Below, piece by piece: positions 4,809 to 36,766 of a DNA stretch of 64,000 nt. The stretch lies in NCBI GenBank assembly GCA_023954715.1, contig JAGSHD010000014.1, positions 1 to 64,000 on the forward strand, written 5' to 3'. Position 1 is the stretch's first letter, and each line of letters opens with the position of its first letter. A program made the translations under genes and the position numbers. The notes under the pieces were generated by a model. That model saw only the letters and a list, made by a program, of their open reading frames with translations. It was not told the DNA's origin and did not search any database. This stretch comes from Candidatus Cloacimonadota bacterium. Its GTDB lineage: Bacteria; Muiribacteriota; UBA6191.

Positions 4809-5190
4809 TTAATTTGAGTAGCAGCAGAGGCCAGATCTTGAGCCACCGGCGCCATCATTTATTCCAAAGAATATAGGGGAATCTTCAAAGTCACAGTTGC
4901 TTTGATAGTTAAAACTAATCATTGTAGAGCCGACAAAATTTGATGAATTATAATTTTTACCAGGAGTTAGGTTACCAGAGCCATTTTTACATACAGTTAC
5001 ATAGTCTTTTAAGTTACAAACTCGTGCATTATGATTTTGACAGTGACTAATCGTATCATTCATGTTCAATTCTCCTGCATTCATAACACAAAGATCAGTA
5101 TCTCCTGTGCCTATCAAAGTAAAGCCACTAGGACAAACCATAGTAGTTGGGCGAGCATGTACATGTACTCCATCGGCATGTGTTTCTGCA
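4809..5190 (-). other. C-terminal Cys-rich tip domain of paralogue A
   Basis: The last ~120 residues leave the repeat pattern. HADGVHVHARP (HxH) is followed by VCPSGFTLIGTGDTDLCVM, then HCQNHNARVCNLKDYVTVC and a terminal GLCCYSN. At least eight cysteines suggest disulphides outside the cytoplasm. The CxNxxARxCxLxDY pattern recalls short lectin-like tips of other giant surface proteins; this is an inference. Confidence 0.6.
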
Positions 5191-8100
5191 TCTCCCAAAT
5201 CAAAGATTTTTGCAAAACTAGTGTCAGAACTACTTACAAGTGATTTTGAAATTATTCCGTTGGTAATATGGCTAGTATTAAAAGAGCCATCCTTAAGTTT
5301 ATCAGTAGATATTAAACTAGAGCTTACTCCTGAGCCATCTTGAAAGACTTTAGTGCTATCAATATCTGTCCCAATAATACCACTAGTAATAAAATCAACT
5401 GGGATCTCAGTATTAGATAAGGTATTTGAGCCTAAAGCCGGTAAATCAATAATAGCTCCATTTAGCTTTTGTCCAGTAATAACAGCGGCTAAAAACTCAA
5501 CAGAGCTAATCGAGTTTGAAGCTGTACGACTATTTAAAGCAGTGCTAAATACAGGGAGTGTGGCAGTAAACTTGGCTAAAGTAACATTAGAGTCTGCTAT
5601 TTTACCCGCTTCGATAATGTCTGTGATTTTAGTAAGTCCAATAGTAGATGTAAGATTAATAACAGAGGAGTCAATGGTATTGTCTACAAACTTAGATCCT
5701 GGTATATCAGCGCTAAATGCGTCATCAGTTAAACTGTCATCAGTAAAGTGACGATCAACAATAGTATCATTAATAAATTTATTTAAGTTTACTCCGTCAT
5801 TTACAATATTAGCTTTAACAATAGCTCCATCGTTAATGTGGGTAGCAGTTATAGCGTCATCGTTTAAGTCATCCCAAGTTAAAGTATTAGCTTGTATATC
5901 AGCATTTACTATTGCTCCTAAATTTAAACTAGCATTTAGAGTTTTATCTACAATATGAGAGTTTAAAATACTGTGATTAGCAAAATCATTAAATCTTAAT
6001 CCACCAGCCAGTTTTGCAGCTGTGATTGAGTTTTCAGCTAGTTTTTCAGTGGCTACGCTACTATCTATAATTGAACTTTGATCAATGGCGTCAATAGCAA
6101 AGTTTCTGTTTATCAAGGTATCATTTAAAAGTCGGCTAGCATTTAGAGTAGCAGCTACAATTTCGTTTGTATCAAGGCTAGCATCCATAACATTTTGGGT
6201 TTCAATGGAACCAGAGTTTAATTTGCTTTGAGAAATATTACCCGCAGTAAATTGACTTCCGTTTACCGTACTATCGGTAATTTTAGCATTGGTAATTTGA
6301 TTTGTTTGAAACTTTGCAGCATCTATGGTGTTTGCATTAAACTTTACGGCATTGATCTTTGAAACGGTAGATAGATCTGGGGCTTTGATTTCTCCTAAAG
6401 CGATTCTATTTTCAGGGATATTATTATCTATAGAGGAGGATTCGATAGTATTGTTGACAAAGTGATCTTTGTCTAACTCATGATCTTTAATGTGTTTTGA
6501 TTCAATAGCAAAAGGGGCAATCTGTACATTAGTAAACGACCCGTTTTCAAGATGCGAGCTAAGTAATACTTGAGACTCTATATCAGATGCAATAATGGTA
6601 TTTGCATTTATAGCACCGATGTTGATAGAGTCACCATCAATGTGCCGTGTAATGATTGCATTTTCATCTATTTCAAGATTAGTTAGAGTTAAGTTAAATA
6701 TCTTACCCGTTGTAATAGTAATACTTGGCATTCTAGAAGAAATTAAAAAGTCGTCAACAAAGTTTCCACCAGTTAAACTAAGACTTTGGATTTTAGAGCC
6801 AGTAATCGTATCATCACTAAAGTCAGCGTTTATAATGTCCTGTAGTTTAATTTTATCAGAGTTTACAACAGCTGTAGTTACATTCGTATTATCAACAAAT
6901 CCATCAGCTATTTTAGATGAAGTTATTGTTTTGTTTACTATTTGACTTGTTTCAATGGCATTTGCTGCTAAGTCTGCATTGGCTAGTGATCTTAGTTTGA
7001 TAGTTTGCGAGCGAATCGATGAGTCATTGATTGTATTAATATCTGTGAATACTCCAAAATGAGAAGAAAATATGGCTTTAGCATCGACTTTATTTACTGT
7101 GAGGTCGTTATTTATATTTGCATTAGATAAAGTATGAGTAACAATGTTTAAGCTATTGATGGCATTGTCAGCAAGTTTAATAGAGAAATCATCAGTGATT
7201 GATAGTTTATGAGTATTAATTGATAAATTAGCAAGAGAAGCATTTAATATCTCCCTATCGATAAAGTGACCAGAAGTTAAATTTTGACTAGTCATATCAG
7301 ACATGACAAATGGTCGATTGGAAAACTTACTATTAACAAAAACTCTATCATTAAAAAACTGTTGTGTAAACTGACCAGCAAGTTTAGTTTGATCCACAAT
7401 ATCACTAGTGAATTTAACTTGATCAAGTAGCTCACCTAACTGCGTAGAAAACTTACCGGCAACGATACTGTCGTTTGATAACTCTCGAGAAGTAATTGTT
7501 AAGTTATCAATTTTGTTAAAAGGGATTGAAACAGTAGAATAGCTAGCTCGTGAGATTGTATTTGTGATAAAACTATGTCCACTTACAGATTGGGTAGCAA
7601 GGGAGCCACTTGTAACAATATTAGTAAACAACATAGAGTTTGTAATCGATTGATGAGCAAAATGCTTGGTATCTATAGAGTAGTTTTGTAACTTTGCTTC
7701 GACAATGGTGCCAGGGTTTACCAGATAAGGCAGCAAACTAGCATCGTTGATTAATCTAGAGTTAATTTCTCCATCGCTAATACTTAAGTTGGATAAGACC
7801 TCTGTAGCCAATTTATCATTTTCTAGTGAAAAACTAGCAGATAAATGACTTGTATCAATGGCATTTTCAACAAAGTTTCTGTTGTTAAAGGCTAGGTTTG
7901 TAAACTGACCTGAGTCAAATCCATTATCAACCAACTTACTGGTTGTGATCGCTGAGTTTTGTAAAGTTTCTCCAAAAAAGGATACATCTTTTATTTTATC
8001 TGTTGTAATCGAAGCGTTTCCAAGTGCATCTGCCCCTAAAACAGAAGTAGCAATCACAGTAGAGTCCAAAGTACCATCTTTAATCATTTCAGAGGTTATG

Positions 8101-11100
8101 ATTCTTGGTTTTAAATCAAAGCCGCTGATCCCATCTGTTGCCAATTTACTTGTATCTATAGAATTAAACTCAAAATGTCCGCCCTCTAATGTCAAGTCTA
8201 CGATATGATTACTAAATACACTGTTGTTTTGTAGTTTAGTCCCACTAAGAGAATTATCTGCAAAAGCATTGTTTCCGAGTGCGCCAGCTCCGATATCCTC
8301 TAATTTTAATGAGCCGTGAGCGACTTGCTTTTCACCCATGGGATTACTACTTGAAAAGCTAGTAGAAATCAAATTGGCAAAAGGTTGATGGTCATATTGT
8401 GGGATAACCTCATAAACATTTACATTATCAGCATACAAGAATCGGTCATTTGGTAATATCGTGAAAGCTTTGGCGTTACCAGTTCCACTCTTAATCTCTT
8501 TAAATGATGAACCACCATTTCGAGTTAAAAATAGCTTTTGTCCTGCTAGAACAAATCCAAGTGTTTCCGATACAAAGTGAATTTTTCTAATTTCTGATGA
8601 AAAAGTATATTTTAAAGTATCAACATCAGACTCTAGTTTATATAGATATTCATCGGCACCAACCCAAAGTTTTCCATCGTCGATTACATCCATCACTGCT
8701 CTTGTGGTTACTGCTGTAGACATAATACTTGTCCATGAGGCGCCACCATTGCTAGTTTTGTAAACTATTCCTCCTGCGTTGCTCCTACGAACACTAAGAT
8801 AAGCAGTTTTACCATCAATAAAATGCAAAGACTTAGGTTTCATATCAACTCCATTAGATATTACTACATTTCCACTTCCAGAGGTTTTTATAGCGACAAA
8901 TTCATTTAGAGTTTGATTATATTTTGACGGAACTAAGTCATTGTTGATCATACCAACTGCAAAAAAGTTGCTTTGGTCAAATGCAAAACCGATTGACTCA
9001 CTTGTATATGGAGTATGGGTAACAGAACTAAAGGTTGAGGCACTATCAGTTGATATACGTAGTTCACCAGTACTAGTTCCAACGATAAAGTTTGTACCTC
9101 GTCCATGACCTTCTGAAAAGGTTTGAGAGTTTTCTGAAATATTGATAGAAGTAAAAGTGCTCCCTCCATCTGTGCTGATCTGTATTTCTGTATTTGGTGG
9201 ATTTTCGTAAAATGCAACGATTTTGTTACCTCCATCTACTGGATATAAGCGATAAATTTCGCTTGCAAGCTTATCGTAGACAATATACTCACCATGGGTA
9301 AATGCTTTGTTTTGGATATGTTGAGCTGCAATAGAGTCAGTTGCTATTTTATCCCCGCTGATACTTGCTGGTATAAAGTGATGGGTCGTTAACACACCAT
9401 TTTTTAAAGAATTAGAAGTTAATGACTCTGATTGTATATGCTTGAAAAAAGTTGTATCAAATACAGCAAGGTTATAATCATTCTTAGTCACTAAAAAGCG
9501 CCCTTCTGATAGATATGTTGGGTTTAAGTCACTATTGTGGGGGATACTAGAGAGTCGAACAGCTTCAAAATTAGCCACAAACTGTTTTAATTGTGTTTTA
9601 ACAAGATCATATCTCCACATGCTTGAATTGGAATCATTAGTAGCTATATAAATATAGTTACCAAGAGCAATGAGCCCTTGTGGGCTAGAGGCATCAAATG
9701 CTGTTTGTTGTGCTGCATCAAAAGAAATTTGAGTCCAGGTTGCTCCATCATTTACTGATGTATAGAGCTTCATGCCTAAGTTATTTACAATAGCATATAA
9801 ATTACCGTTGTCTGGATTATAACTTAATGATTGAAATTCATTGATGAAAAATAGGTCTGTATGAGTTGTAAAACTTTGTCCACGATCGTGTGACACCAAA
9901 AACTCGTTAGCGGTTAAATTGGTAGTATAAATGGTGTCCTCATGGATGACCCATGGTAACAACGCATTAGAACCGCTATGAGAAAAGGTCCAATTTCGAC
10001 CAGAAGATACAGAGTAGTAGATCTCATTTGGGTTGGTTGCAAGTACTAAAACTCCTTCAGTTTGACTGAAAAAATGAATATCTTTTACTTTTCCAGGAGC
10101 GGTATCTGTCTTAGCCCATGATACACCACCATCAGATGTGTACATAATATCAAAAGATACCGAGCAAGCAGCATAACCTGTTTTATCGTTAAAAAAGTAA
10201 ATAGCATCCACTGCATTAGTACAGGCATTATTTCCAAGAGCAGTAAGGGTATCGTAATTAGGGGGAGATAATTTTTGAACTGTACCAGACCCATCTTGAA
10301 CTAAAAAGACTTCTCCACTATTTAGGCGAATTGAGTTTCCAAGTTTACCAAGGTTTATACCGATAGATGAATCCACATCACTGTTGATATCATCGATAGC
10401 GAATTGAGAGATCACTCCTGTTTGAATAATATCTTTACGAACTGCATCTACAAACAATTGGTTATGGCTAAGGCTGTAGTTAATGATAGAATCGCCACTA
10501 ATTGTACCATCAATAAAATGTTCAGACTTGAAAACACCGCCGGTATTAGTAGCCAATTTGATGTAAGAAACTGCATCTGTATCAATATGTTCAGCTAACA
10601 CAGACTGATTTGTGATGATACGTGTAATGATTTGATAGGATGCAATGGATCTGCTACTAATAGATGAGTCTTCAATACTTGCTGTAATAATGGTATTAGT
10701 TTGTAAAAATTCACCAGCAATTGACTTGTCTTTTATATTGGCACTATCCAACTGGTTTAATGCTATTTTTTTAGATGAAATAGTTTCGTTTAAAAACTTA
10801 TCTTCTTTGAAAATAGCGCTGTCAAAATCTTCGGTGATGATTGAACTAGGTTTGATTTTTCTAGTAGTAATTTGTAAGTCTGCTACCTTATCTGTATGGA
10901 TAGAAGTTGTTACAGTTGCGATGTGACTACCTAGTATGCTCGCATTTGAAAGTGTTCTTGTTGTGATCGAGTCATTGGCGAAGTCTTCAGATAATAAAGA
11001 GTTATATAAAATTTCAATAGAATCGATGGAGTCTTCTGATACTAAGAGACCGATTGAATTATCCTTAAAGTCTTCTGTTCTAAGAGTCCAGCTGATTAGA

Positions 11101-14100
11101 TGTTCACCATGGATAGATCGATCCAAAATTTGATCACTAGTGATGGTAGATAATGCAAAACTAGTATAATCAATAGTATTAGATAAAAATTGCTCATCTC
11201 TTAAAGAATCATCCATTAAATGATGGGTATGAAGAGCTGATGCAGCAAAACTTCGATCAAGTAGTACATGAGTTTTTATTAACTCTTGAATAATAGAAGA
11301 TGTAGATAGATGATAGGTTTTGATAGCTAAATCATTAATATCATCAGAAGTCAGACTATTACTAAGAAATCTAGAGTTAGTCAGTTGATGAGCAGTTGCA
11401 GTTGATACTTTTGAATTAGTAATATTAAAGTCTTGGATATGTCGAGCCTGTATGGAGCGATTGATAAACATAGATGTAAAATCGATTGCTTCAGCTGAAA
11501 TATCAGAGTTTTCTAAAGTATAGCTTTTTACTTTAACCCTAGAGACGGAGTTATTTTGAAAGTGACGAGACTTAAGGTCTCGGTTTAAAATATGTGTAGA
11601 TAAGATATTAAAGTCTTCAATAACACGATTGTCGATAGACTCATCAGCAAGGTCTACAGTTTTTATTTGATGAGTTACTATATCCTCACCATGAACTGAC
11701 TCAGATGTTAGTTTAGATAGGGTGATTGATTCATTTTTTAGTTTGTCAGAAGTAATCGAAAAGTCAATAATCTCTTCAAAACCAATAGAGTTAATAGCAA
11801 GTACTCTACTATCAATAGACTGTAAGTCAAAGTCTGAGTCAATTAAAGTTTGATCGGCAATGACTCTTGAATCCACACTATAAGAAGCAATTTTACTAGA
11901 AGTGATTGAGTCTTCTTTGAATTGCTCTCCAGTAAAAATAGAGTCTGCAATAGCATGATCACTTAGTGAGTTATCTTTTATATCTATATTTGTGATCGTG
12001 CCATCGATGATATTATCTGAGATAAACGAGTCACTAGAAAAGTTCATTGAGGCTAATGAGTTCATCTTCAAGTTGTTTGATTGAATACCAGCATCATCGA
12101 TATTTCTTGCAGCAACGGAAGCGTCTAGATTTGGGTGCCATAGTATTAAAGAGTTTTCAAGTGTTGCGGAACTAGAAGGGATATAAAATCTGTGTTGGTA
12201 TAACACAACTTGATTAGTACCACTATCAGAGTTAATGGCAAAATCAAAGGTGCTCAGTGGAGTAATAGATACACCAGGAACAAAGCGATAAACCATGTTT
12301 TTATCTTGGTCCCCACCAAAAACGTAAATATCTCCATTATAAGAGTGAGCACTGCATCCAGTAAAATCTATATTAAAACCACTAAGATCTACGGTCCATG
12401 ATGAGCCATCATTGGTTGATACCCAAACACTATCATCACCAAAAAGGTAAATATTATTTTGATGACTTACATGCTCTGTACCAATAAAATTATTAGGAAG
12501 AGGGGCTAAGGTAGTAACTGTTAAGGGATTTAGAGTAGCTTCTTTAGACTGATCTAAATAAGTGCTAGCAGCACTTCTACCACCAAACAAATAGATTTTG
12601 GAGTTTAAGCTAGCACTTTGATGATCACTCACATTTGTAAATGAACTTGACGACTGATTTTTCCAGGTAAACCCATCTCGTGATGTAAAGGTATCATCGC
12701 TGTAGTTTCCTCCAGTTAAAATCAAAAATTCTTCATTTTTAACGATATGATGGCCAGCTCTAGCTGAGAAACTACCGTTATTATGCTGTATCCAATTATC
12801 ACCATCTCCAGTTGAATATATTTCGTTGGATAATCCAGATAAGGAATCCCCACCAATTAACCATAGTCGATTTTGAAACACGATGGTTTGATGGCTTTTT
12901 CGTGGACTCCAAGGAGGCCTAGAATGTCGAGTCCAAGTGATACCGTCAGTTGATGAATGAACCTCATCAGTTCGTCCAGAAGCAGTTTCTCCACCCAAAA
13001 TAAAGATACGTCCGTTAAATACAGTCATAGTATGATTAGTAATAGGGCCAGTAGGAAGAGTAGCCCCCAGACTTGTAAAGTTTTGAGCATCACCAGCACT
13101 ATAGACTACATCACTGAATCCTGCTCCAGTATCTCCACCACTGATATATACAGTTCCACCATGTACTACGGACTGATGACCAAATAGTGCACTAGGAAGA
13201 CTAACACCTGCATCGGTAAAGGAACTACCATCAAAGCTAATAACCTTATCGCTCGCTGAACCATTGTATCCACCGTATAGATAGACTTGAGATCCAAACT
13301 TCACCGATGAAGATTGGGACATATTACTAGGTAGATTAGATACATTAGTGTAAGAGCTAACAATCTCATCTAGTTTAAGTTTGTGAGCATCGTTACTATG
13401 ACTACCTGCTCCACCTATAAAATAAAACTCGCCTTTATGAGAAAGGGCTTTTGCAGAATAATCATTAGAGTTAGTAAAAGTAGCTGATGTATAAGTGGTT
13501 AATGTGTCGCTTGGATAATCATAGGTGTAAAATAGTGAATCTCCAAAAAATTGTATTGAGTCTTGATCATAGATATAGGCATACTCATTGCTTAATCCAT
13601 CCAATGAAGGATGTGCATGTGAAGTTTTACTCGTTAAATTAATCCTTTGTGCAGAAGCATGTCCACCACCAAAAACTAACATTTCGTTTTCAAAAATGGC
13701 TACCACTGGGTTTGTTCTACTGTTAAAATCAATTGGGCCAAAGGTAGTTACTTGGCCATAACCACCTGAAAAGAAGTGTCGATCAAAAATACTATTGTTA
13801 GAGATATCTATTGTGCCAAGGGTTAGATCAGCAAGCTTACCGATTGTTACAGCATCGCTTTTTAAAACAGAGCTAGTACAATTGCCAGGCAAATTAGAAG
13901 ACCATGTAGTCAATTGACAGTCTACTAAAGAGAAATCCATAATTACATTGCTATCAATCGACCCTGTAGATAACTCACGGTAGGTAATAGAGAGAGTCTC
14001 GATATCAATGGATGCAATGGAGTCAGTATCTACTTTAGAGTCATCCACAGCGTCATCTGCAATTTTATCTTTTGTAACTAGTAGGTCCATTAGGTTAGCT

Positions 14101-25900: not shown

Positions 25901-28900
25901 ATCGGCAATGCTTCCACTAGTTACAGAGTTTGCCGCCAAGTGAGAGATCAAGATTTGATCATCAACTACTTTATTTGAAGAGATTGTTTCAGCAGCGATT
26001 TTAACATCAAAAATAGAATTTTCTGTAAAAGTCTCTGCTTGTAAAGTTAGGTCTTGTAAATGTTGTTGTTCAATAGCAGCATTTTCAATTTTATTATCAG
26101 TAATTGTATTTGTGGCAATAAAGCCAACTTCAATAGAGTTAACTTGTAAATGACTTTGTTCAATGACTTGGCCATTAAAAGATGATTCATGAAATGTTAA
26201 CTCAGCTAAATGAGTATCATCTAATGTTGTTGCTGTGATATTCCCATTTAGAACAGCATTTTCTTTTAGGTTGTGAGCAGGTTGGATGAAAGCATTAGTT
26301 TTGTCAATGGTAGCAGTGTGAGATGTTATTGCGATTAGCTCTCTTTGATTAACATTGCTAAAACTCGATTCATATAAATTATTGGTATCAAAGTAGTAAA
26401 ACTTATCTCCTAAATACATTGGATTTAATGGAGTTACTCCTCCCCAGCTATTTCCAATAAAGGAGTTACCCCAAGCACAGGCACCTACGGTAGTTCCATT
26501 TACCCCTATAAGGTATGAGCCATCCTTTGTAATATTAATATCGTTAAATCCACCTACAGTATCATTGCAGTCTCCGCCTTGAACAGCTAATGTACCAGCT
26601 GTAATATGGGCCCATTTATTTGTATCGTCAGCAGCAAAAACAAGTTTATCAAACCCGCTTTGTCCAAGAGTGCTAACTTCTGTTGTAGATAAGTCATGGA
26701 GATTGTAGCTATATACCTTTTGGTCTCCTTCATGATAATACATGATCTCATCGTTAGTATTTTTCCAAGTTAAAAATGGGGTAGAGTCACCGTTAAATGG
26801 GACTCCCGTATCGATAATTTTCTCTAGATAGAGATCGGACCAATGAATATTTCCATTAGCAATGAATGCAATTTTACTATTGTCAGGAGATACGCTTGGA
26901 CTAATCAATCTTGTGATTCCACCACCAATGGATGCAAAAGTAGTTTGTGCACCATTAGATTGAGTTACATATAAAGAACCTCCATTGGATTGGTATAATC
27001 TTGCTTTTGTGGTGTCCATAGTACCTGTAGCAAAAGGGACATTACTTAGATTATTGAAATGTCCATCTGTTAATGAGAGGGTCTTGATTTTTGACTGTGT
27101 TAGCGTGTTGGCTGTTATATCTTCTCCTAAAATAGAGTTACTTGCTATTTTATCGTTAGTAATAACAGCTGGTTTGATGTGGACTCCGCTTACAGCTTGA
27201 TCATTTATTTTTGAAGTTTCAATATCATAGCTCACCACAAACTGACCAATAATTGAGTCCTCATCCAACAGAGCAGCATTAATCGTACCAGACTTAATAA
27301 CATCATTCGTCAACGATAAGAGTTCAAAATCTGCTAGTGTTATTGAATCAGAAAGTATTTTGTTAGCCTCAACGGATTCATTCAAAATATTTTGGTGGAT
27401 AATTGAATGATCTTTAATTTTTTGCTTAATAAAGGCACGAGTTTTAAACTTTTTTCCTTCAAAAGAATTTGATAATAATGAACTCTCTTGGATAGATAAA
27501 TCATCAATTTGATCATTCCAGTATTCATAGAGCGAAAAGTGATTGCTTTTAACTTCTCCATTAATGATATGCCTACTAGTGATCGTTTGAGGTAAGATTC
27601 GAGAAACAGAGAAAGTACCATTACTCACATCATCACTGGTTAATGTGTTTTTTTGAAAATGAATTCCAAAAATTGCATTATCTTTAATGTTGTTCGCAGA
27701 AATTGCTTCGGATTGTATTTTACTACCGTGAAAACTGTAAAAATCTAAATTTGTTGTGTTTAGGGCCTCTGTTTGAATATCACTATCTTGTATTGCTTTA
27801 GCATTATCTGTAGTAAATAACCTTGCATCAAAGCTGGATACTTGAAGTAGAGGATAATCGATTCCACCTAAACTAGCAAAGTCATCACCTGTAAGTGTGT
27901 CGGTAGTAATTTTTTGATCTCCATAAATAGACTCGCTTCTAATTTTTTCTTTGGTGACAGACTCAAAGGCTATGACGCGGGTTGAAATAGCATCTGAGCT
28001 AATTTTAACACTGCTAACAGAGTTTGATGCAAAAAGTGAGCTGATTAAAGCTTTAGTAAGATAGGAGCTTTCTGATATGGAGTTTGCAGCAAGTTTTTCT
28101 CCTGCAATAGATGATGTGACAAAGGATTTTTGATCAAACTCAGCGGATATTTTAGCGGCTAGGAGGGTGCGATTCGCTATTTTTTGTTGTTCAATACCTT
28201 CGCCAAATTTTGACATTAGGATGCTTTTTCCACCGGCTAAAAAGATGGACTTGTCTTTTGAGATATGACAAGCAGTAAATAGTTGGTCATCATAATCAGA
28301 GTTTAGGACCTTTTCCCATGTTTTACCTCCGTCATAAGTAATGAGAGTATTTTGTCCTCTAGCAGAAACTAGGGCAATTTCATTGGATATTGCAGATATA
28401 TCTTGAACTTTTTCGCCAATATCAGTGAGTAATTGAGAGGGGCCTCCAGCACTAGTAACATAAAAAACTTTACCTGCAGAGCTACCAAACCAAATTCCAT
28501 CACCATAATCAGAGCTTATCGCTGAAATACTTACGCCAGCTGTTGAGAGTGTATAGCTACTTGCTGCAGAAAAATCACTGGTTAAAATAGAGTATACTGA
28601 AGCATCTCCACCAATAAGTACTTTTCCAGCACTGCCATAATTTAAGTCATTTGGTTGTGATGCTAAAGCTCGTGCAGTTTGGGTAGAAAATCCATTACTA
28701 GTAACAAATGCGTTGGTATTTATGTCCATGATGATTACACCATCATTTTCACTCTTAAATAAAAACTTATGTCCAGTGCCGCCAAAGTTAGATTGGACAG
28801 AAAATGTTGATCCACTAGTACTTGATTTGTAGAGGACTCTATTTCGATCAAATCCATAAGCAGTACTTGAGTCTACAAACATTAACTCTTCAAAATTTGT

Positions 28901-31900
28901 TAGATGCTCGGATCTTTGTACCGCATTAAATGTTTCACCATTGTCTGTACTTAAATAGTTTCTATGGGCGTTGTTGACTGTAAAATACTGCTCGTTTAAG
29001 ACCTGTAAACTAGTAAAAGCTGCTTCAGCTGAGTCGGCAGTACCAAACGATGCATAGTTACTATATGTAGAGCCGTTATCAGAAGTTTTTGCTATAGAAA
29101 TGTCGTTGTTTGAGCGTACTTTGAATATAAGATACCAATTATTTTTATCAATGAATACAGTATCAATAATATCAATAAGGGCACCATCAACCATAGGTCT
29201 AGAGGAAACCCCAAATCCAGTTGCTACAGCCGCTGAACCACTAGGTGCAAAAGCAACATGATCATCGATGTTACCGGTATTCATCCAGATGTGATTGAAA
29301 GTTGTTCCACCCAGATCAAAAGTATTTAAAACATTCCAGTTATCTGTTGTACGGACAATTCTATCTTCAATAAAAATCTGTCCATTATTTAATGAGGTCA
29401 TTTGGAATTGTAGATCAGAGTAGTAGGTGACTGTATGATTTAATTGTAGATACTCATCTAGAGAGTCTCCTCCTTGAGTGGAAGAGTAATCAAAATTTGC
29501 GCTAGCCCCATTTTCTCGTACAATCCAAATATGCTGTAAAGAGTTCAAAGAGTAAACTCGTCTAAATCCACTGCCATCGTTTTTACGGATTTCTCGTAGA
29601 CTTAAAGCAGAGTCATAGGTCATCCATGCTGTATTATCAGAGATAAATACACCATGAAACTCATCTTCAAAATGAAAGTCATAAATGTCCACACCAAAGT
29701 CTTGCACAAGAGCAAACTGTGCTCCTTGGTTTGTAGACAGGTATAATTTTTGTTTGTCTACCAAGACCCATACTTTTTTATCAATACTGAGTGCTTTAGT
29801 GAATTCAGAGGTAGGTGTTAAATTATCTTGTTTAACTAAAGTATTTTTACTAGCAGAGCCAAACTCAAATATTCCTTCTAATTTATCAAATAATAAGAGT
29901 TTGCCGTTTTGTAGTTTTACAGCTTTTTGTATATTAGTTAGTTGATTGGAGTCGCTGAGTGAATAAAAGCCCTGAGTAGTACTTAAATCACTGACTCTGG
30001 TTTGAAGGTTTCCGTTGCTTACACTGGCAGAGGCTAAATTAGAAGAAGTTAAGGTAAAGTCTAAGATGTGGGTTGTCAAAATAGAAGAGTCTGCAAAATG
30101 ATCTGACTCAATCGCTCTTGAGTTAATATGAGAAGATAAGATAGCAGCATCGTTAATATCTTCTTGTAAGATTGTTAGGTTTAGGATGTTACCACTTGTA
30201 ATAGCACTTTGAGCAAAAACAGATTGAGGTAAGGCTGTCATATCAAGGTGTTCATCAGTAATGGTTTGATTTAAGAAGTCTTCAGATGAGAGGGATGATA
30301 GTTTAATTTTTGAAGAAGTGATTAAGCTACTTTCTAGGCTAGCTGAGGTAATAGTTAGTGGCACAATATGACGATTTTCTATAGTGTGAGTTTTAAACAA
30401 ATCATACGAAATTGATAGATTACTGATTTCTCCATTGGTTATAGAGTTAGAAGCAAAATGAGAATCAGATAAAATAATATGGGCAAAATCAGAGCTAGTC
30501 AGTGTAAAACTTTCAATTAATGAGGAGTGAATAGCATTTTGAGTTGTAATACGTGTACCAATGGCTAGATCACTAACCAGATTATTTAATACAGCTAAAT
30601 CGATAATATGTGTTGTTAGGATTTGTTGGTCAACAATCATTCTGGCTGAAATAACATTACTATCAATATGAGAAGATAAAACAGCATCTGTGTTGATATT
30701 GAGAGTTTCAATAGAAAAGTCACTTAGTTTGATTGTAGATATTTGACTGGTTTGAATTTTCCACTGACTTACAGAGTTAAGAGCAAATTTACTACTAGTA
30801 ATCTCTTTGTTTGGGATCAAGGAGTTGATAATACTTAAATCGATGATGTTTGTAGAATATATAGATTGGGGTGCGATTATTCGTGTATCGATTTGATCAT
30901 CTCTAAGGTCAATGGTCTGTATGGATGCATTCAAAATTTTATCTGTGACAATGGCACTAGGAGCAATGTGCACCGAAACAATTTGGCTAGAGCTCAATGC
31001 TGCTGTTTGTATTTCTGAACTTAAAACTTTTGAAGAAATCACTGCATTAGTTGCAAATTTACTAAGTATAATGGACTCGTTAGCAAGTTTTTCAGATGAT
31101 ATTGTATTTGTTTGCCATAATTGGAGTGTTAAAGAGTTAGCAGCAAAATCTTGATCAATCAAAGTGCTATTTTTGATTTGCATGCTATCTAAAGTGTTAC
31201 TAGCAATTTTACTATTTGTGATAGAGGCATCTTCAAAACTTTGTGATGTTAAGGTGTTTTGAGAAATAGAGCTAGATTCAAAAACTTTTTCGGCAATTTT
31301 AGTAGCTATAATTTGACTATCATCAATTTGGTGGGATTGTATAGACAAGTTTTGTATGGATGTACCACGTATAGTTTTTGTTAAAATATCGCTTTGAGCA
31401 ATAGTATTGGTAGTGATTTGATTTGAATCAACTGTATTTAGAGCTAGATGTGAAAGTAATATATTATCTTCTACAAAGTGTTCACCAATTATGCTTCTAT
31501 CTATTACCTTTAAGCTAGAAATGATTTTATCTGCAAACTTATGATTTGCACTCAATGCAGCAGCAACAATAGTGTTTGTATCAATATCAATTGTAGCTAT
31601 GGATTGACTAACAATTTTAGTGTAATCAATGGAGTCCATTGCAAACACAGAACTAGTTAAAGTATTAGAGGAAATATTAGATGATACAATAGTATTGGTA
31701 TCAATTTTAATACTATTAATGGAGCCATCACCAAAATCAGAATTTGTTAAATCCAATGCTTTCAACCGGCTACTGATGATAGTGTAGTCCTTTATTTTAG
31801 CAGTGGATATAGATTTATCTGCAAAATTATCTCCGCTCAATGAGTCTAAAAGTATTTTGATAGAGTCAATTGCTCCGGTAGATACATGATCATAACGAAC

Positions 31901-34900
31901 AGAGTTATCTAAAATTTTATCTGTAGTAATAGACTGATGCGCAAATAGTTCTCCCGTTAGGGTAGAAGGTTGAATGTGGGAGTTAGATATTTGTAGAGTA
32001 TTGATATGATAGGATTGAATGGAGCCATCAATCAATAATGTACCATCAATTTCTCCATTGGCGATATGTATATTTTGAATAATTTCATCATCGAGGTTTT
32101 CAGAAAAAATAGACGAGTCTTTTATAACCACTGAGCTAAGGCTGTCTTCTTGAAAATGGCGACTTAGAAAGATAGATGTTTGTAAACTAGCTTGGCGTAT
32201 AGAATTGTTTGTGAATAGCTTACTGTTTAAACTATTGTTTTTCAACTTTATGTTTTCGATGCTTAAATCAATGATGGCGTCATTTGTACTAGCATCTCCA
32301 CCTATATTGGAAACACCCGATGCATCACCAATAAACTGAACTGCATGGACGCCACCTGTACTCATTGCTGAAAAAACTGTACTACCAGAATCAGTACGCA
32401 CCAATAAGAGTGGTTTAGTACCTGAATCTGTTGTTGGTTCAATGGAAAGAACTAATCCATCACTAGTAAAAATACTTTGATCTAAAAAGGCTCTATAGAT
32501 TGTTGAAGTAGACTCAGAAGTAGGAATACTATTATCAATATCTTGCCTTGCGATATTTTCTATGGATACTCCACCAATTTTATCGTGCCTATGTAAATAA
32601 TCTGCATTTAAGTGATTCGTTAATACATTTAAATCACCAGGTGTCATTAAAATACCCGACCCACTAGAAAAATTATCAGCGATAATAATACCCTCTGTAT
32701 TTTTAACAGATAAAGCCATGCTATGAAATTTTGATGTTCCTGTGTATGTAATTTTGTTAGCTTTTTGAACGTGAAAAGTATCTAATCCAATAATGGTAGT
32801 ATTTGTGGTTTGATGATCTGAATTAATATGGATGTGAGGAGTTTTCACCCATTCAGCTGTAGTTTGATCTAGGACCTGTAAAGAATTTAACTTACTATGT
32901 TGATTTAAATCTACTAGAAAATCATTGTCTAAATCTAAAAATTGAGGAGCAGTTAGAGTGTTTTCGGTAGATAAAGAAGAGCTCAACTGAAGAGTTTGTA
33001 TATTAGAAAAAGTAGAAGGGGATAGATAAAAACTAGAGTTATCCCGATCTTCAAAATATCGAAAGTATCCCGTTGTAGCCTTTATCTGATTTGCAGCTAA
33101 TCCAGAAATAACAAGCTCTTTATGTGCTGTTTGACCAATGTAGACACTAGTAACAAGATCAGAGGTGTCTGAAAATTGGAGTGTATCTCCGCTTTGCTCT
33201 GTTACGTGGATCGTATCAGAAAAAGTTAAGCTTTTGTCATAAGTGATATCATGAAAGTTTGTTAAGTTTCCGTCAGGATCAATGGTAAAATAGGTAACAG
33301 GATTAGAAGAACCTGCTGCTAATATATCTTCAGAGCGAATACTATGGGTTACAATATCCATTTTGTGCATGACAGTATCTGCGTTTATCTCAACAGCAGG
33401 CCCTGATATATCCACGTTACCAGTGACTACTAAATTATTAAGTTGAAAATCAGAGGTTAACTGAAGAGATTTAGCTGAGAGTCTACCAGTTTGGTCCACA
33501 TGAAATGATACAGAGCCCCCATTCATTACTTTGATATCATCTCGATATACGAAATCTTTTGATACAAACAATCTATCTTGTCCATATAAACCATCGTCAC
33601 CACGTAATTGCTCTTGGACGTCCATATTACCAGATACAACAAAGCTATCAAAAATACTGATGGTATCGGCACTTAGGTTTCGTACATTTGAGCTACTGTG
33701 GGGATCTAGTACATAAGCTATATTGTCTATATCAACTATAGAGGTTGTTCTGATTGTACCTCCGTTAAGTAATATGCCGTTATAATGGCTAGTGGTAAAC
33801 TTTGCATCACCCGCATGACTCAAATTACCATTATGAATAGTTAAATCTCCTGCTTTCATTAAAAGATCGCCGTTTGCAATAAGTCTTAAACTATTTAATA
33901 CAGAGTGCCCTAAAGGGTACATTACTCGATTCGGGTTGGTTTTACCTTCAATTTTTGTACCATAGATAGTTTGTTCTACAATAAGGCTTTCATCTTTAAT
34001 AATTAGCCCGTTGTTAAGATCAACATGTCTAGTTTGTAAGTTACCAAGAACAAAAGCGTTACCATTGGTGACATTAATACTGTTATAAACAGAGAGGCCA
34101 TCTAAGTAACTCGTTTGATGAGGGGTAGCGTAAAACGAAGGATTGTCATAGTCATAATAAGTTGTTGTATAAGCATAAGCAGCAGTTAGATTACCATTAA
34201 CATTAAAGTTTGAACTAATATTTAAGTTGGCTCCAAACTCGAGTTTGTTTCCAACATAGAAGGTTCCGACAATCGATAGGCTGTCAAAGTGTGATAGGCT
34301 ATTAGGATCAATTTTATAAGGGACCCCATCTCCTAAATTGTTACGATCAATAAACTCATCTGCTGAAACTTCAGATATTCCAAAAGAGGTATTATCATGT
34401 AAGTTAATTAATCCGGTCATCTTGGCAGGTACATTTTGGTTTCCAAAATTGATTTCGCCTAATATGTTTAGAGTCTCAGGTATATAGACATAAGAATTTG
34501 GTTTAGGCACACCACTTGAGTTGTCATCAGTTGATCTAATCTCAAGGTCTCCTCCTAAATTGTTTGATCGATCTATGTCTATGTTACCAGTGATAGAGAC
34601 ATTTCTTGAGATAGAAACAAGATCTTGAAAGGAGGCTTCACCAGCGTGTATGTTTAAACCGAACTGATTATCTAATTGTTCTTCAATGCCTTTATTACAT
34701 AAGCCATCGTTGGGATCACAATACTGCTCATTAACAAAACGAATCTCAGAAACAGCATGAGTGTTATTGTTACTACCAATAACGATAGGGCTATCATTTA
34801 TTAAATCAGCCCCCATATAAACATCAAGACCTTCTGCTTTAGAGACAATTATTTTGTTACTTGCCGTTACATCATGATTTCTAAACTCGTTAACCGCTGT

Positions 34901-36766
34901 TAGTGTCTGAGGAAGAGTAGAGTCAACAGCTGTGATTGGCATGATATCTTTGATGAGACGCTTTTTGGAACTATCAGCACCATTGATAATATCAATTAAA
35001 TCAGAGGCCGTAGCATTATCATCAATATTATGGATATGAGCTTTGTAAACCAAGTATTTTGTACCATTGGACTGCATGTTAGGGTGCTCGATAATATTTG
35101 GAGAGTTTGGATTGTCAAAACATGAGATGGGAGTACCAAGTAACTGGGAGTTTGGAATACCTCGACAAGGGTCAATAACGTAATATTTACCTTCGGGGTT
35201 GGTACCATCAAAACCAGATTTACCGTCAATGCCAGCACAATAATCTTTACGCAGCGCTTGGTGATAAGTTAAGCCAATTTTACAAAGAGGAACCTGGCTT
35301 AATAAATCAAAAGCCATGTCTACTTCTAGGGGGGTATTTAGATTATCTGAGATATTATCGCTTTCCCCTGTGTTTTCATTGTGATTATATAAAACTAATG
35401 AATCAATGGAAGTAATCTGATCAGCAGATACTTGATATGCTTTAACATTGTTGGCATCTTTTATGGGCGATAGAATTTTAGGTGCGTAGATAACACCTGC
35501 ACCTGCAACACTCACATGAGCAGTTTTTGCTGTACTTACTGGTCCTGTAATTTTTAGCTGAGATTGGTCTTCAGGATCAGAACTAAGAAGGCCAGGGTTT
35601 GGAAGAATGGTCAATGAGTTAACTTTAGTCCCTGTATTAATTTCATCTTCTTTGATAACTACATAGGGGTCAATTTGAAAGTCCTTGTAGTCCTCTGATT
35701 TATCGAATGCTCCTAAACGGTCTCCTTGTATTTCTTCTCCTAAGGCATCGATTTCGTTAACGGTAATCTCTCCCTCAACGGTTGCATCCATAGCAAAGAC
35801 ATTTGCGGGGATTAGCTCTGTATCGCCAATTTTGTATGGGGAGACCTCGACTCCTTTATTTAGTAAGACTCGACCGGCCGTTATATGGGCCGAAACGTCA
35901 GAAATAGCAAGATCACCTGAAGAACCGAGACTGACATTATTATTTTGTGGTATATGAATTGAAAAAGCACTTCCGACTTCGGTAGGGGCCATGTCAAAAG
36001 CTGTGAAATCGCTACCATCTGTTTTTTGCTCTGGAAAGCGGATGACTAGACCAGATCCAGTGTATTGGCTTGAGGGTAAATCTAAGCCACCATCACTAGG
36101 AGGGTTTGGACAATTACTAGAAGTATTTGCCAGTTTTGGGTTATAACAGATATTGACAGTGTGAGGATTTGCATCATCAGGAGATACGACCTCTAAAAGA
36201 GCGTCCCGATTATAGGATTGGTTAGTAGGATGAGGTTCGATAGTTAATCGGCCTTGTTTAATGTCTTCTCCTTTTGTGGCTACCGATGAAACAGAGTAGG
36301 GAGTTCCATCAATATTAAAAGGGCCAACCCAGGTTTCTTCGTTTGTACCAAAAGGTACAACCAATAAATGCATGACAGGATGATTTTTTTGATCAGCAGC
36401 ACCAAAGCGAAAACGAGTTTCAAAAAGTGAAGTGCTTAAACGATTATTAGGATGGACTCCGATTCTTTGGTAGATGATTCCATCTTTGATATTTATTTTT
36501 GGAAACTGCTCTACCCAATAGGAGCCTTCTTGGAAAGAGTCTAGAATGTTTGCGGTAGAATATGGAGGCTTAGATAAGTCTCCTTCTTTGGTATAAGTGG
36601 GATGAATCCAAAAAGTTACTCCTACCGTACCGTTAATAGGCACACCAGTATCTGCTTCAGATAAAAAACCTTGAAAGTTAATGGTATTAAAGGAGTCTAA
36701 GCTTTCATCAGTAAAGGTGGTAGCAATACATAAAATTGACAATATAAGAAAAATTAGTTTATTCAC
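22574..36766 (-). CDS. Giant secreted fibre-like protein with Asp-box and TolB-like propellers (paralogue B)
   Basis: About 4,730 residues. From GTG 36766 the protein opens with an ideal Sec signal, MNKLIFLILSILCIA. The frame runs on to a GTG at 36847, but that would bury the signal 27 residues in; neither start has a good ribosome-binding site, so the choice rests on the signal. Then come a beta domain (INFQGFLSEADTGVPINGTV ... DGTPYSVSSVATKG), a beta-rich shaft to ~1,420, the motif YLHRHDKIGGVSIENIA, four decapeptide tracts, one Asp-box block, two TolB-like blocks and a C-terminal domain after SHHKHD. It shares the overall plan with paralogue A but carries different propellers. It lies 64 bases downstream of the CBM20-esterase gene on the same strand. 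Surface-fibre function is inferred; no anchor is visible. Confidence 0.85.
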   Translation of the reverse strand: MNKLIFLILSILCIATTFTDESLDSFNTINFQGFLSEADTGVPINGTVGVTFWIHPTYTKEGDLSKPPYSTANILDSFQEGSYWVEQFPKINIKDGIIYQRIGVHPNNRLSTSLFETRFRFGAADQKNHPVMHLLVVPFGTNEETWVGPFNIDGTPYSVSSVATKGEDIKQGRLTIEPHPTNQSYNRDALLEVVSPDDANPHTVNICYNPKLANTSSNCPNPPSDGGLDLPSSQYTGSGLVIRFPEQKTDGSDFTAFDMAPTEVGSAFSIHIPQNNNVSLGSSGDLAISDVSAHITAGRVLLNKGVEVSPYKIGDTELIPANVFAMDATVEGEITVNEIDALGEEIQGDRLGAFDKSEDYKDFQIDPYVVIKEDEINTGTKVNSLTILPNPGLLSSDPEDQSQLKITGPVSTAKTAHVSVAGAGVIYAPKILSPIKDANNVKAYQVSADQITSIDSLVLYNHNENTGESDNISDNLNTPLEVDMAFDLLSQVPLCKIGLTYHQALRKDYCAGIDGKSGFDGTNPEGKYYVIDPCRGIPNSQLLGTPISCFDNPNSPNIIEHPNMQSNGTKYLVYKAHIHNIDDNATASDLIDIINGADSSKKRLIKDIMPITAVDSTLPQTLTAVNEFRNHDVTASNKIIVSKAEGLDVYMGADLINDSPIVIGSNNNTHAVSEIRFVNEQYCDPNDGLCNKGIEEQLDNQFGLNIHAGEASFQDLVSISRNVSITGNIDIDRSNNLGGDLEIRSTDDNSSGVPKPNSYVYIPETLNILGEINFGNQNVPAKMTGLINLHDNTSFGISEVSADEFIDRNNLGDGVPYKIDPNSLSHFDSLSIVGTFYVGNKLEFGANLNISSNFNVNGNLTAAYAYTTTYYDYDNPSFYATPHQTSYLDGLSVYNSINVTNGNAFVLGNLQTRHVDLNNGLIIKDESLIVEQTIYGTKIEGKTNPNRVMYPLGHSVLNSLRLIANGDLLMKAGDLTIHNGNLSHAGDAKFTTSHYNGILLNGGTIRTTSIVDIDNIAYVLDPHSSSNVRNLSADTISIFDSFVVSGNMDVQEQLRGDDGLYGQDRLFVSKDFVYRDDIKVMNGGSVSFHVDQTGRLSAKSLQLTSDFQLNNLVVTGNVDISGPAVEINADTVMHKMDIVTHSIRSEDILAAGSSNPVTYFTIDPDGNLTNFHDITYDKSLTFSDTIHVTEQSGDTLQFSDTSDLVTSVYIGQTAHKELVISGLAANQIKATTGYFRYFEDRDNSSFYLSPSTFSNIQTLQLSSSLSTENTLTAPQFLDLDNDFLVDLNQHSKLNSLQVLDQTTAEWVKTPHIHINSDHQTTNTTIIGLDTFHVQKANKITYTGTSKFHSMALSVKNTEGIIIADNFSSGSGILMTPGDLNVLTNHLNADYLHRHDKIGGVSIENIARQDIDNSIPTSESTSTIYRAFLDQSIFTSDGLVLSIEPTTDSGTKPLLLVRTDSGSTVFSAMSTGGVHAVQFIGDASGVSNIGGDASTNDAIIDLSIENIKLKNNSLNSKLFTNNSIRQASLQTSIFLSRHFQEDSLSSVVIKDSSIFSENLDDEIIQNIHIANGEIDGTLLIDGSIQSYHINTLQISNSHIQPSTLTGELFAHQSITTDKILDNSVRYDHVSTGAIDSIKILLDSLSGDNFADKSISTAKIKDYTIISSRLKALDLTNSDFGDGSINSIKIDTNTIVSSNISSNTLTSSVFAMDSIDYTKIVSQSIATIDIDTNTIVAAALSANHKFADKIISSLKVIDRSIIGEHFVEDNILLSHLALNTVDSNQITTNTIAQSDILTKTIRGTSIQNLSIQSHQIDDSQIIATKIAEKVFESSSISQNTLTSQSFEDASITNSKIASNTLDSMQIKNSTLIDQDFAANSLTLQLWQTNTISSEKLANESIILSKFATNAVISSKVLSSEIQTAALSSSQIVSVHIAPSAIVTDKILNASIQTIDLRDDQIDTRIIAPQSIYSTNIIDLSIINSLIPNKEITSSKFALNSVSQWKIQTSQISTIKLSDFSIETLNINTDAVLSSHIDSNVISARMIVDQQILTTHIIDLAVLNNLVSDLAIGTRITTQNAIHSSLIESFTLTSSDFAHIILSDSHFASNSITNGEISNLSISYDLFKTHTIENRHIVPLTITSASLESSLITSSKIKLSSLSSEDFLNQTITDEHLDMTALPQSVFAQSAITSGNILNLTILQEDINDAAILSSHINSRAIESDHFADSSILTTHILDFTLTSSNLASASVSNGNLQTRVSDLSTTQGFYSLSDSNQLTNIQKAVKLQNGKLLLFDKLEGIFEFGSASKNTLVKQDNLTPTSEFTKALSIDKKVWVLVDKQKLYLSTNQGAQFALVQDFGVDIYDFHFEDEFHGVFISDNTAWMTYDSALSLREIRKNDGSGFRRVYSLNSLQHIWIVRENGASANFDYSSTQGGDSLDEYLQLNHTVTYYSDLQFQMTSLNNGQIFIEDRIVRTTDNWNVLNTFDLGGTTFNHIWMNTGNIDDHVAFAPSGSAAVATGFGVSSRPMVDGALIDIIDTVFIDKNNWYLIFKVRSNNDISIAKTSDNGSTYSNYASFGTADSAEAAFTSLQVLNEQYFTVNNAHRNYLSTDNGETFNAVQRSEHLTNFEELMFVDSSTAYGFDRNRVLYKSSTSGSTFSVQSNFGGTGHKFLFKSENDGVIIMDINTNAFVTSNGFSTQTARALASQPNDLNYGSAGKVLIGGDASVYSILTSDFSAASSYTLSTAGVSISAISSDYGDGIWFGSSAGKVFYVTSAGGPSQLLTDIGEKVQDISAISNEIALVSARGQNTLITYDGGKTWEKVLNSDYDDQLFTACHISKDKSIFLAGGKSILMSKFGEGIEQQKIANRTLLAAKISAEFDQKSFVTSSIAGEKLAANSISESSYLTKALISSLFASNSVSSVKISSDAISTRVIAFESVTKEKIRSESIYGDQKITTDTLTGDDFASLGGIDYPLLQVSSFDARLFTTDNAKAIQDSDIQTEALNTTNLDFYSFHGSKIQSEAISANNIKDNAIFGIHFQKNTLTSDDVSNGTFSVSRILPQTITSRHIINGEVKSNHFSLYEYWNDQIDDLSIQESSLLSNSFEGKKFKTRAFIKQKIKDHSIIHQNILNESVEANKILSDSITLADFELLSLTNDVIKSGTINAALLDEDSIIGQFVVSYDIETSKINDQAVSGVHIKPAVITNDKIASNSILGEDITANTLTQSKIKTLSLTDGHFNNLSNVPFATGTMDTTKARLYQSNGGSLYVTQSNGAQTTFASIGGGITRLISPSVSPDNSKIAFIANGNIHWSDLYLEKIIDTGVPFNGDSTPFLTWKNTNDEIMYYHEGDQKVYSYNLHDLSTTEVSTLGQSGFDKLVFAADDTNKWAHITAGTLAVQGGDCNDTVGGFNDINITKDGSYLIGVNGTTVGACAWGNSFIGNSWGGVTPLNPMYLGDKFYYFDTNNLYESSFSNVNQRELIAITSHTATIDKTNAFIQPAHNLKENAVLNGNITATTLDDTHLAELTFHESSFNGQVIEQSHLQVNSIEVGFIATNTITDNKIENAAIEQQHLQDLTLQAETFTENSIFDVKIAAETISSNKVVDDQILISHLAANSVTSGSIADKSILTTHLINNLIDSSSLIQDNIVTASFIASDAVSTFHIVAGSILTTHIADLSIKEENLAYSSITNTYLESNIFQADQFQPSVITNDKLIASEIKAGDAFIVTIEGGDIYRYDWDGSNRTLVDDNATDWTHLQKSAHGNKLTAMLSNDSYDIDFINTGSTIIESNTTNTFQIRDRLNNKTLILASNGDLNWYRDGKYLSTVDTNVRNYGIAYHEETGKIAYSNSAFPDEMIINTNGSTIVAYTAVNTTFRVAYPSFSKDGSSLYFIAATATQGRLKKYDGVISNLSAYDANTSWESRVQSYINDTFVYYTQNNKDLYRARNVNSNFEHTLMLDSGSDITDFQVMPFSAFANNTFTHTNVSSNAITTSVWSNRVLTGGNFTDTTIDTLDLEDNSFEAEVFLDSAFTTSKFTGFITTSIIASRAISSRAILDGSIENDHIEDNSFATEHFAQNTLDTNDLSGANIDGEKLEDFAVTGIKVDTNNEIQGPKIAIESVANDQITSGEIFTTHIKENTLIGEDFGLINASAFASNSISSTHFLTNEILAGKITLNTLDNSVLKSSVITPGHINLNVITSVKVDDGTIIGGLFSDGVITNNKLASDTLISANIVDGRVDGANMASDLDDSSILDSTLNNLDLAQNTFNAGHFNGTIVQNANIVAASIRNEKIADNAITASLLNNVVGTKIDGESFVDNAFGVAEIDDLTITSANISKALSSTNIGLITLEDTEFLASNLVKADFETTFATERNILDGSINSADLIAGAIIKSSGTDRLTLNSQQILSDHVFNDLEGSILENNAIVSGDIGASSLTVSKIKDTIIDKSKLVLSTIVNADFAPNAILNVHIPDKLITSVKIAGASFTEAHVSGLSGDEITDGSLSVNNVADNTIQNVDLLAGSFGATEIKTIEFADLEATAKFSNTHFADLTIVNDDINDNQVTGAHFNAAMSIAKFDINTITYNKLNFGNTVISELFGGGNADSHHKHDILTQEILCNGVGASKVGTSGNAFCIVPNINAKFFSQHDTYTAYTLNNIVVRGRMCTAEQLWRAEKAGISFTNLDTHLSSDFMVSPKGLGGTFKTLLFNDSTPDNHSGFGEHVVTGGADGGNSAWCF
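23010..24850 (-). repeat. Decapeptide repeat tract 4 of paralogue B (~61 units)
   Basis: Same ten-residue pattern as in paralogue A: ESVANDQITS, DGTIIGGLFS, NNAIVSGDIG, DNQVTGAHFN. The tract runs from the last TolB-like block to the tip. Confidence 0.78.
24900..25620 (-). other. TolB-like propeller block 2 of paralogue B
   Basis: About 245 residues with WD40/TolB-type blades: GDIYRYDWDGSNRTLVDD, YPSFSKDGSSLYFIAAT (PD40-like) and KDLYRARN. Length suits one six- or seven-bladed propeller. Confidence 0.6.
25620..26290 (-). repeat. Decapeptide repeat tract 3 of paralogue B (~22 units)
   Basis: Units include NSIEVGFIAT, NTITDNKIEN, AETISSNKVV and DKSILTTHLI. The tract links the two TolB-like blocks. 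Confidence 0.75.
26330..27030 (-). other. TolB-like propeller block 1 of paralogue B
   Basis: PD40-like blade SPSVSPDNSKIAFIANG, with GSLYVTQSNG, DEIMYYHEGDQKVYSYN and DKFYYFDTNNLYESS, indicates a TolB/WD40-like beta-propeller of about 235 residues. Confidence 0.65.
27030..28190 (-). repeat. Decapeptide repeat tract 2 of paralogue B (~39 units)
   Basis: Units such as ANSISESSYL, SNSVSSVKIS, SDAISTRVIA and FESVTKEKIR show strict ten-residue phasing. Confidence 0.78.
28200..29930 (-). other. Asp-box propeller block of paralogue B
   Basis: About 575 residues with Asp-box turns: STNQGAQFALV, TSDNGSTYSNY, STDNGETFNAV, SSTSGSTFSVQ and TYDGGKTWEKV. This is enough for one to two propellers related to the BNR/sortilin/Ycf48 group. 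Confidence 0.65.
30010..32275 (-). repeat. Decapeptide repeat tract 1 of paralogue B (~75 units)
   Basis: The longest uninterrupted tract of this paralogue. Units include NNSLNSKLFT, DNSVRYDHVS, TNTIVSSNIS, SNTLTSSVFA and DSIDYTKIVS; hydrophobics recur every five residues. Confidence 0.8.

What the first reader, a model, noticed from the sequence alone, without database searches (positions are those of the whole stretch)
4809..36766. Two adjacent giant secreted paralogues built as beads-on-a-string: decapeptide solenoids carrying beta-propellers
Seen: about 10,600 residues in two consecutive genes with the same N-to-C plan and alternating repeat tracts and propeller blocks. Inference: a modular surface fibre whose propeller beads display binding sites along a solenoid, a design I do not recognise as a named system. 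The cost (half of this window) implies an important job such as attachment, predation or prey/substrate capture.
Basis: partly seen in the sequence, partly recalled or inferred. Interest (0 to 1): 0.85.

Follow-up and report, generated by a model that had tools for sequence, protein, structure and literature searches.

The report
Giant lectin-tipped surface fibres with propellers
Two neighbouring bacterial genes encode enormous secreted proteins (about 4,700 and 5,900 amino acids) that look like oversized relatives of the adhesive fibres the predator Bdellovibrio uses to recognise prey, with phage-fibre-like ten-residue repeats as shaft, beta-propellers inserted along it and a lectin-like tip, and the pair has kept its layout across two genera.

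Summary
Two same-strand genes (B: 36766-22574, A: 22478-4809) encode secreted proteins of about 4,730 and 5,889 aa. Each has an N-terminal domain, a stem of about 1,300 aa, decapeptide tracts (about 2,000 aa each; consensus S-I-T-S-x-K-I-A-D-N) alternating with propeller blocks, and a Cys-containing C-terminal domain. The pair, its order and its tract lengths are conserved in the same genus and in a second genus, at about 30% identity. A third giant and two small paralogues lie elsewhere in the genome.

The tip domain is homologous, by sequence (E 5e-6 to 7e-11) and predicted fold (TM 0.72), to the C-type-lectin tip of Bdellovibrio Bd2740, a "mosaic adhesive trimer" (MAT) fibre. The N-terminal domains are faintly related to the MAT N-domain, below its curated cut-off. 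The decapeptide tracts match phage tail-fibre families (E to 5e-30), and the monomer prediction shows no solenoid. Best reading: giant MAT-like, probably trimeric, adhesive fibres with inserted propellers, a new variant of a known kind. Trimerisation, surface display and ligand are inferred, not shown.

The parts
36701..36766 (-). Giant B: signal peptide (aa 28-49; GTG start at 36766)
   Evidence: hydrophobic segment LIFLILSILCIATTFT; start aligns with orthologue B1
36233..36700 (-). Giant B: N-terminal beta-rich domain (MAT-N-like in position; the NF053851 profile does not match B directly)
   Evidence: 83% identical in orthologue B1
32288..36232 (-). Giant B: stem, about 1,315 aa, partly period 6, no known family
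29996..32287 (-). Giant B: decapeptide tract 1 (764 aa)
28196..29995 (-). Giant B: beta-rich block 1 (600 aa; BNR-like, sub-threshold)
27044..28195 (-). Giant B: decapeptide tract 2 (384 aa)
26273..27043 (-). Giant B: propeller-like block 2 (257 aa; PD40-like, sub-threshold)
25607..26272 (-). Giant B: decapeptide tract 3 (222 aa)
24863..25606 (-). Giant B: propeller block 3 (248 aa; PD40 just above cut-off)
23024..24862 (-). Giant B: decapeptide tract 4 (613 aa)
22577..23023 (-). Giant B: C-terminal tip domain
22317..22478 (-). Giant A: signal segment (aa 1-54, long n-region)
   Evidence: conserved ...SVP[YF]GA... in A1 and A2
21834..22316 (-). Giant A: N-terminal domain (weak match to NCBIfam Bdello_MAT_N, sub-threshold)
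17859..21833 (-). Giant A: stem, about 1,325 aa
14790..17858 (-). Giant A: propeller block 1 (1,023 aa; Kelch and WD40-like)
13773..14789 (-). Giant A: decapeptide tract 1 (339 aa)
12126..13772 (-). Giant A: Kelch propeller block 2 (549 aa)
   Evidence: 4.6e-27
10389..12125 (-). Giant A: decapeptide tract 2 (579 aa)
9441..10388 (-). Giant A: Sortilin/BNR-type propeller 3 (316 aa)
9297..9440 (-). Giant A: short decapeptide tract 3 (48 aa)
8328..9296 (-). Giant A: BNR-like propeller 4 (323 aa, sub-threshold)
5247..8327 (-). Giant A: decapeptide tract 4 (1,027 aa)
4812..5246 (-). Giant A: C-terminal C-type-lectin-fold tip, homologous to Bdellovibrio Bd2740 tip (PDB 8oks)

Best explanation
A and B are giant adhesive surface fibres distantly related to the MAT (mosaic adhesive trimer) fibres of Bdellovibrio. 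Steps: (1) exported by a signal peptide (sequence shown, function inferred); (2) the N-terminal beta-rich domain sits at the cell surface (inferred from MATs); (3) three chains wind together through the stem and the phage-tail-fibre-like decapeptide tracts into a long shaft of set length (trimer inferred; conserved length shown); (4) beta-propellers inserted between tracts project sideways at fixed distances as extra binding modules (position shown, binding inferred); (5) the C-terminal C-type-lectin-fold domain forms the tip that contacts a glycan or protein on another surface (homology and predicted fold shown for A, trimer and ligand unknown). B and A are 95 bp apart, in the same order in three genomes, so they are probably co-expressed and used together for attachment or cell recognition.
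For: Tip: AF2 model with pLDDT about 70-87; best PDB match 8oks, the Bdellovibrio Bd2740 C-terminal domain (E 8e-5, prob 1.00, TM 0.72), then C-type lectins. A profile of the giants' tips alone finds 8oks at 4.9e-6, giants plus small paralogues at 7.2e-11, small ones alone at 9.4e-9. N-domain: NF053851 Bdello_MAT_N matches small paralogues at 9.2e-8 and 1.5e-5, and orthologue A1 at 6.4e-4 over model positions 2-151 of 162. Tracts: PHROG tail-fibre family 892 at 1e-28 (B tract 1) and 5e-30 (A tract 4), and a phage family of unknown function at 3e-42; phage tail proteins in tblastn. Third giant: C-type lectin (phmmer against PDB, 8e-15) and Laminin_G_3. Conservation: A and B present in all four family genomes, tracts nearly gapless, propellers faster; purifying selection by codon position. 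MAT biology: PMC10769870.
Against: No oligomer could be modelled, so the trimer is by analogy only. NF053851 stays below its curated cut-off (60 bits) everywhere and has no direct match in B. The Bdellovibrio MATs described are about 600-1,150 aa with no propellers mentioned in the parts of the paper read. PHROG tract matches may reflect shared periodicity rather than descent. Organism uncultured; no localisation data.
Confidence: 0.62

Rival explanations
1. One reading: monomeric beads-on-a-string in which each decapeptide tract is an intramolecular beta-solenoid (pentapeptide-repeat-like) carrying propellers.
For: Period 5/10 with hydrophobic cores; sub-threshold Pentapeptide_4 matches (34.8 against cut-off 38); profile matches to designed pentapeptide proteins and to IcmE/DotG in PDB.
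Against: Small residues at i-2, the pentapeptide rule, are not enriched (17% and 37%), while i-1 is S/T/A or K/H. AF2 gave no solenoid in two runs (pLDDT 21-45, short helical turns about every ten residues). The closest families by E-value are phage tail-fibre families.
Confidence: 0.2
2. The tracts are flexible, mostly unordered spacers and the proteins are tethers that only hold propellers and a lectin tip together.
For: Low AF2 confidence in the tracts; Ser/Thr/Asn/Asp-rich composition.
Against: Tract length and register are kept almost without indels down to about 31-37% identity (764/764/760/762 aa in B; 768/770/751 residues in unbroken decapeptide register in C), and core positions are 99% hydrophobic, unlike a disordered linker.
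Confidence: 0.12
3. The fibres are specialised for predation or parasitism (capture of other cells), as in Bdellovibrio. This is a narrower version of the best explanation, not an alternative anatomy.
For: Closest tip homologue is a predator fibre; giant proteins are linked to predation in Omnitrophota (PMC10066038).
Against: No other predation trait was examined; related tips and fibres may serve ordinary attachment; no lifestyle data for this lineage.
Confidence: 0.2
4. Prophage or phage tail structural genes rather than a host surface fibre.
For: Tracts match phage tail fibres.
Against: Signal peptides; no phage genes seen around the pair in three genomes; conserved in order across two genera; neighbours are ordinary cellular genes.
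Confidence: 0.03

Closest known systems
MAT (mosaic adhesive trimer) fibres of Bdellovibrio bacteriovorus, especially Bd2740 (PDB 8oks; PMC10769870)
   Same: Signal peptide, beta-rich N-terminal domain, fibre-like body, C-type-lectin-fold C-terminal tip with detectable sequence homology, several paralogues per genome with different modules.
   Different: Roughly 4-9 times longer; decapeptide tracts of about 2,000 aa in total and inserted Kelch/BNR/PD40 propellers; N-domain below the curated MAT cut-off; different lineage; trimer not tested.
Phage tail fibres with decapeptide repeats (PHROG 892, 28766, 21412; P-SCSP1u gp28; phage J proteins)
   Same: Same decapeptide repeat by profile search; gp28 is a trimer (PMC10575957).
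   Different: Signal peptide, no phage context, propellers and lectin tip here; the distal part of gp28 was not resolved, so its repeats have no structure.
Apilactobacillus kunkeei Giant1-5 (PMC12863079)
   Same: Consecutive genes for 3,000-8,000-aa extracellular rod-like proteins, thought adhesive.
   Different: No shared domain seen: alpha-helical rods, N-terminal beta-solenoid, SH3b-like C-terminus, Gram-positive.
Pentapeptide-repeat (Rfr) solenoids
   Same: Hydrophobic residue every five positions.
   Different: Small residue at i-2 missing; decapeptide rather than pentapeptide unit; below the Pfam cut-off.

Membership tests
MAT superfamily | Signal peptide | tested here: met
   Hydrophobic N-terminal segments in all nine giants examined; no other hydrophobic stretch in the window's two proteins (heuristic, not SignalP)
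MAT superfamily | Conserved beta-rich N-domain of about 130 aa after the signal peptide (NF053851) | tested here: inconclusive
   Small paralogues 9.2e-8 and 1.5e-5; A1 6.4e-4 near full length; A0 0.015; B0 none; all under the 60-bit cut-off
MAT superfamily | Adhesive C-terminal tip (here the C-type-lectin subtype of Bd2740) | tested here: met
   (fold predicted for A; B by alignment and shared profile)
MAT superfamily | Intertwined trimeric body | not testable with these tools
   Only monomer prediction available
MAT superfamily | Surface display on the cell | not testable with these tools
MAT superfamily | Multiple paralogues per genome with varied modules | tested here: met
   A, B, C, a partial second C copy and two small members
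Pentapeptide-repeat (Rfr) solenoid | Pfam profile at cut-off | tested here: not met
   34.8 bits against 38
Pentapeptide-repeat (Rfr) solenoid | Small residue at i-2 of each central hydrophobic | tested here: not met
   A/S/T/C 17% and 37%
Kelch propeller (A block 2) | Curated Kelch models at cut-off | tested here: met
   95.2 bits against 50; Kelch_1 73.3 against 20.1
Sortilin/BNR propeller (A block 3) | Pfam Sortilin-Vps10 at cut-off | tested here: met
   39.2 bits against 33
PD40 propeller (B block 3) | Pfam PD40 at cut-off | tested here: met
   26.3 bits against 20.9 in the whole protein, 21.0 in the slice
BNR/PD40 propeller (B blocks 1 and 2) | Pfam model at cut-off | tested here: not met
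   BNR 16.5 against 27; PD40 16.4 against 20.9

The most novel reading that the evidence does not exclude
A family-specific set of giant (about 5,000-aa) trimeric fibres in which phage-fibre decapeptide rods act as rulers of fixed length that hold propellers at set distances below a lectin tip: a multivalent capture organelle, possibly for catching other cells, built from enlarged MAT-like fibres outside Bdellovibrio.
Probability: 0.3. Interest if true: 0.8.

Novelty: new variant of a known kind. Interest (0 to 1): 0.62.

Why it matters
If true, MAT-type adhesive fibres are not confined to Bdellovibrio and can grow to about five times the usual size by adding phage-fibre rods and propellers. 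It gives testable meaning to otherwise unannotated giant genes in an uncultured lineage, and a case where rod length, more than rod sequence, seems to be what selection keeps.

Tried and rejected
Search of the decapeptide consensus in PDB gave only 9eg4 orf16 and P-SCSP1u gp28; the distal part of gp28 is unresolved and I could not find out whether the repeats are resolved in 9eg4, so I have no structural template for the tract. AF2 of B aa 2150-2960 with five rows was too poor to interpret (mean pLDDT 37.7). The second model against viral predicted structures gave nothing significant. DNA tandem repeats: none. Phage origin was considered and rejected for lack of phage genes around the pair; one tract hit in a distant relative (G027) is a phage tail J-like protein. 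A viral scan with alignment A5 could not be run because the alignment was too divergent. Plasmid hits are partial matches centred on the tract. hhalign of A2 against A7 shares rows and is circular; replaced by A2 against A8, which gives 76% probability, E 2e-5. Two paper searches for giant proteins in this lineage found nothing.

Full report
Observation. The window (contig C29 of a 4.58-Mb, 86%-complete genome) has two long minus-strand ORFs, B (22574-36847) and A (4809-22478). The likely start of B is the GTG at 36766, where the orthologue also starts. A repeat model trained on the A and B sets finds decapeptide tracts at A aa 2564-2902, 3452-4030, 4347-4394, 4718-5744 and at B aa 1521-2284, 2885-3268, 3526-3747, 3996-4608, about 2,000 aa in each. 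Shuffling destroys the signal, and the third giant, not used in training, shows it too. There are no DNA-level tandem repeats. Between the tracts lie propeller blocks: Kelch/WD40-like, Kelch, Sortilin/BNR and weak BNR in A; BNR-like, PD40-like and PD40 in B. In B only the last block reaches a curated cut-off, so the propeller reading of B's first two blocks is weaker; AF2 makes the first block strand-rich but at low confidence. Before the first tract or propeller both proteins have a stem of about 1,300 aa without known families, and both end in a Cys-containing domain.

Relatives. Of 40 genomes of the phylum held, only the four of the same family have the giants. Named records for three of them are NORP72 and BROCD023 (labelled Candidatus Cloacimonadota) and UBP17_UBA6191; the labels disagree, so I do not assert a phylum. 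B precedes A on the same strand in three genomes, with gaps of 95, 70 and 45 bp; the fourth is fragmented. A third giant C (5,281 aa) with tracts of 1,024 and 952 aa, a partial second C copy at a contig start, and a tandem pair of 862 and 904 aa share the plan. Trees of the N-domain and tip group A with A and keep B and C apart from A across genera, so the types look older than the genus split, though deeper branches are weak.

Evolution. Between window and same-genus orthologues, N-domains are 77-83% identical, tracts 53-77% with almost no gaps, and propeller blocks 45-63% with more gaps (the assembly gap in B1 tract 2 is excepted). In B the first tract is 764, 764, 760 and 762 aa in four genomes at 35-73% identity. 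In C, 768, 770 and 751 residues run in unbroken decapeptide register. The intact orthologue A2 has lost about half of A's Kelch block 2, while the flanking tracts differ by 16 and 11 aa. Gap counts for propellers in B2 and C2 are inflated by assembly gaps and are not used. Codon positions 1 and 2 differ less than position 3 throughout, as expected under purifying selection.

What the tracts are. The closest families are phage tail-fibre and structural PHROGs (tail-fibre family 892 at 1e-28 for B tract 1 and 5e-30 for A tract 4; a phage family of unknown function at 3e-42), and phage tail proteins appear in tblastn with the small paralogue. The pentapeptide Pfam model stays under its cut-off, and the pentapeptide rule of a small residue two before the core residue (from general knowledge of that family) is not met. 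AF2 on single chains gives pLDDT 21-45 in tracts, with short helical turns about every ten residues and no solenoid. That fits an obligate oligomer or disorder; conserved length and register argue against disorder. The solenoid claim is thus unsupported but not excluded: PDB profile hits to pentapeptide designs and IcmE exist.

What the tip is. AF2 predicts the A tip well (pLDDT about 70-87), and Foldseek ranks the Bdellovibrio Bd2740 C-terminal domain (8oks) first with TM 0.72 and probability 1.00, followed by C-type lectins. Sequence profiles agree without using the model: 4.9e-6 from giants only, 9.4e-9 from small paralogues only, 7.2e-11 together. Caulton et al. [quoted passage not shown] The NCBI model of that domain matches the small paralogues (9.2e-8, 1.5e-5) and, weakly, A1 over nearly its full length, but under its curated cut-off. 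Giants and small paralogues share N-domains (hhalign probability 76%, E 2e-5) and tips (97%, 4e-10). Giant C further carries a C-type lectin (8e-15 against lymphocyte antigen 75) and a Laminin_G_3 domain.

Conclusion. Shown: coordinates, modular plan, conservation, tip homology and predicted fold. Inferred: export, trimer, rod, propeller binding, adhesion. I call these MAT-like giant fibres, not proven MAT members, because the curated N-domain cut-off is not reached and trimerisation is untested. Predation is possible but rests only on the kinship of the tip.

Noticed in passing
L040 (G000:C22:28634-44479): Third giant, 5,281 aa, same plan, with a C-type lectin, Laminin_G_3 and Kelch modules after its last tract.
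   Followed up: partly
L059 (G000:C24:1-3318): A near-identical second copy of the 3' part of giant C at a contig start, partly differing in sequence; possible recombining duplicate or assembly effect.
   Followed up: partly
L041 3836-9140 (G000:C18), L044, L046: Tandem small paralogues (about 860-910 aa; three in G002) with the same N-domain, decapeptide tract and CC-ending lectin-like tip: the likely minimal form of the giants.
   Followed up: yes
L060 5988-12743 (G000:C15): 2,251-aa protein with a similar N-terminal region, one short decapeptide tract and many GGxxN-type repeats (Pfam LbR_Ice_bind 2.6e-14, BppL_N 4.7e-5): another fibre-like protein.
   Followed up: partly
L047 4838-10318 (G027): Decapeptide tract inside a phage J-like tail protein, in what looks like a prophage of a distant relative.
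   Followed up: no
window 39230-40048 (+): Small protein that looks like a pentapeptide-repeat protein, conserved close to the pair in the same genus.
   Followed up: no
window 1396-4803 (+): Hsp70-like protein followed by a short protein-kinase-like gene, convergent with giant A; in G001 ABC-efflux-like genes lie beside the pair instead.
   Followed up: no
window 44983-51859 (+): Two tandem proteins over 1,100 aa that look like HAMP/SpoIIE-type phosphatases, conserved near the pair in the same genus.
   Followed up: no
window 21834-22316 (-): The A N-domain also has a weak match to the TANFOR domain (TIGR02542, E 0.003-0.01).
   Followed up: no
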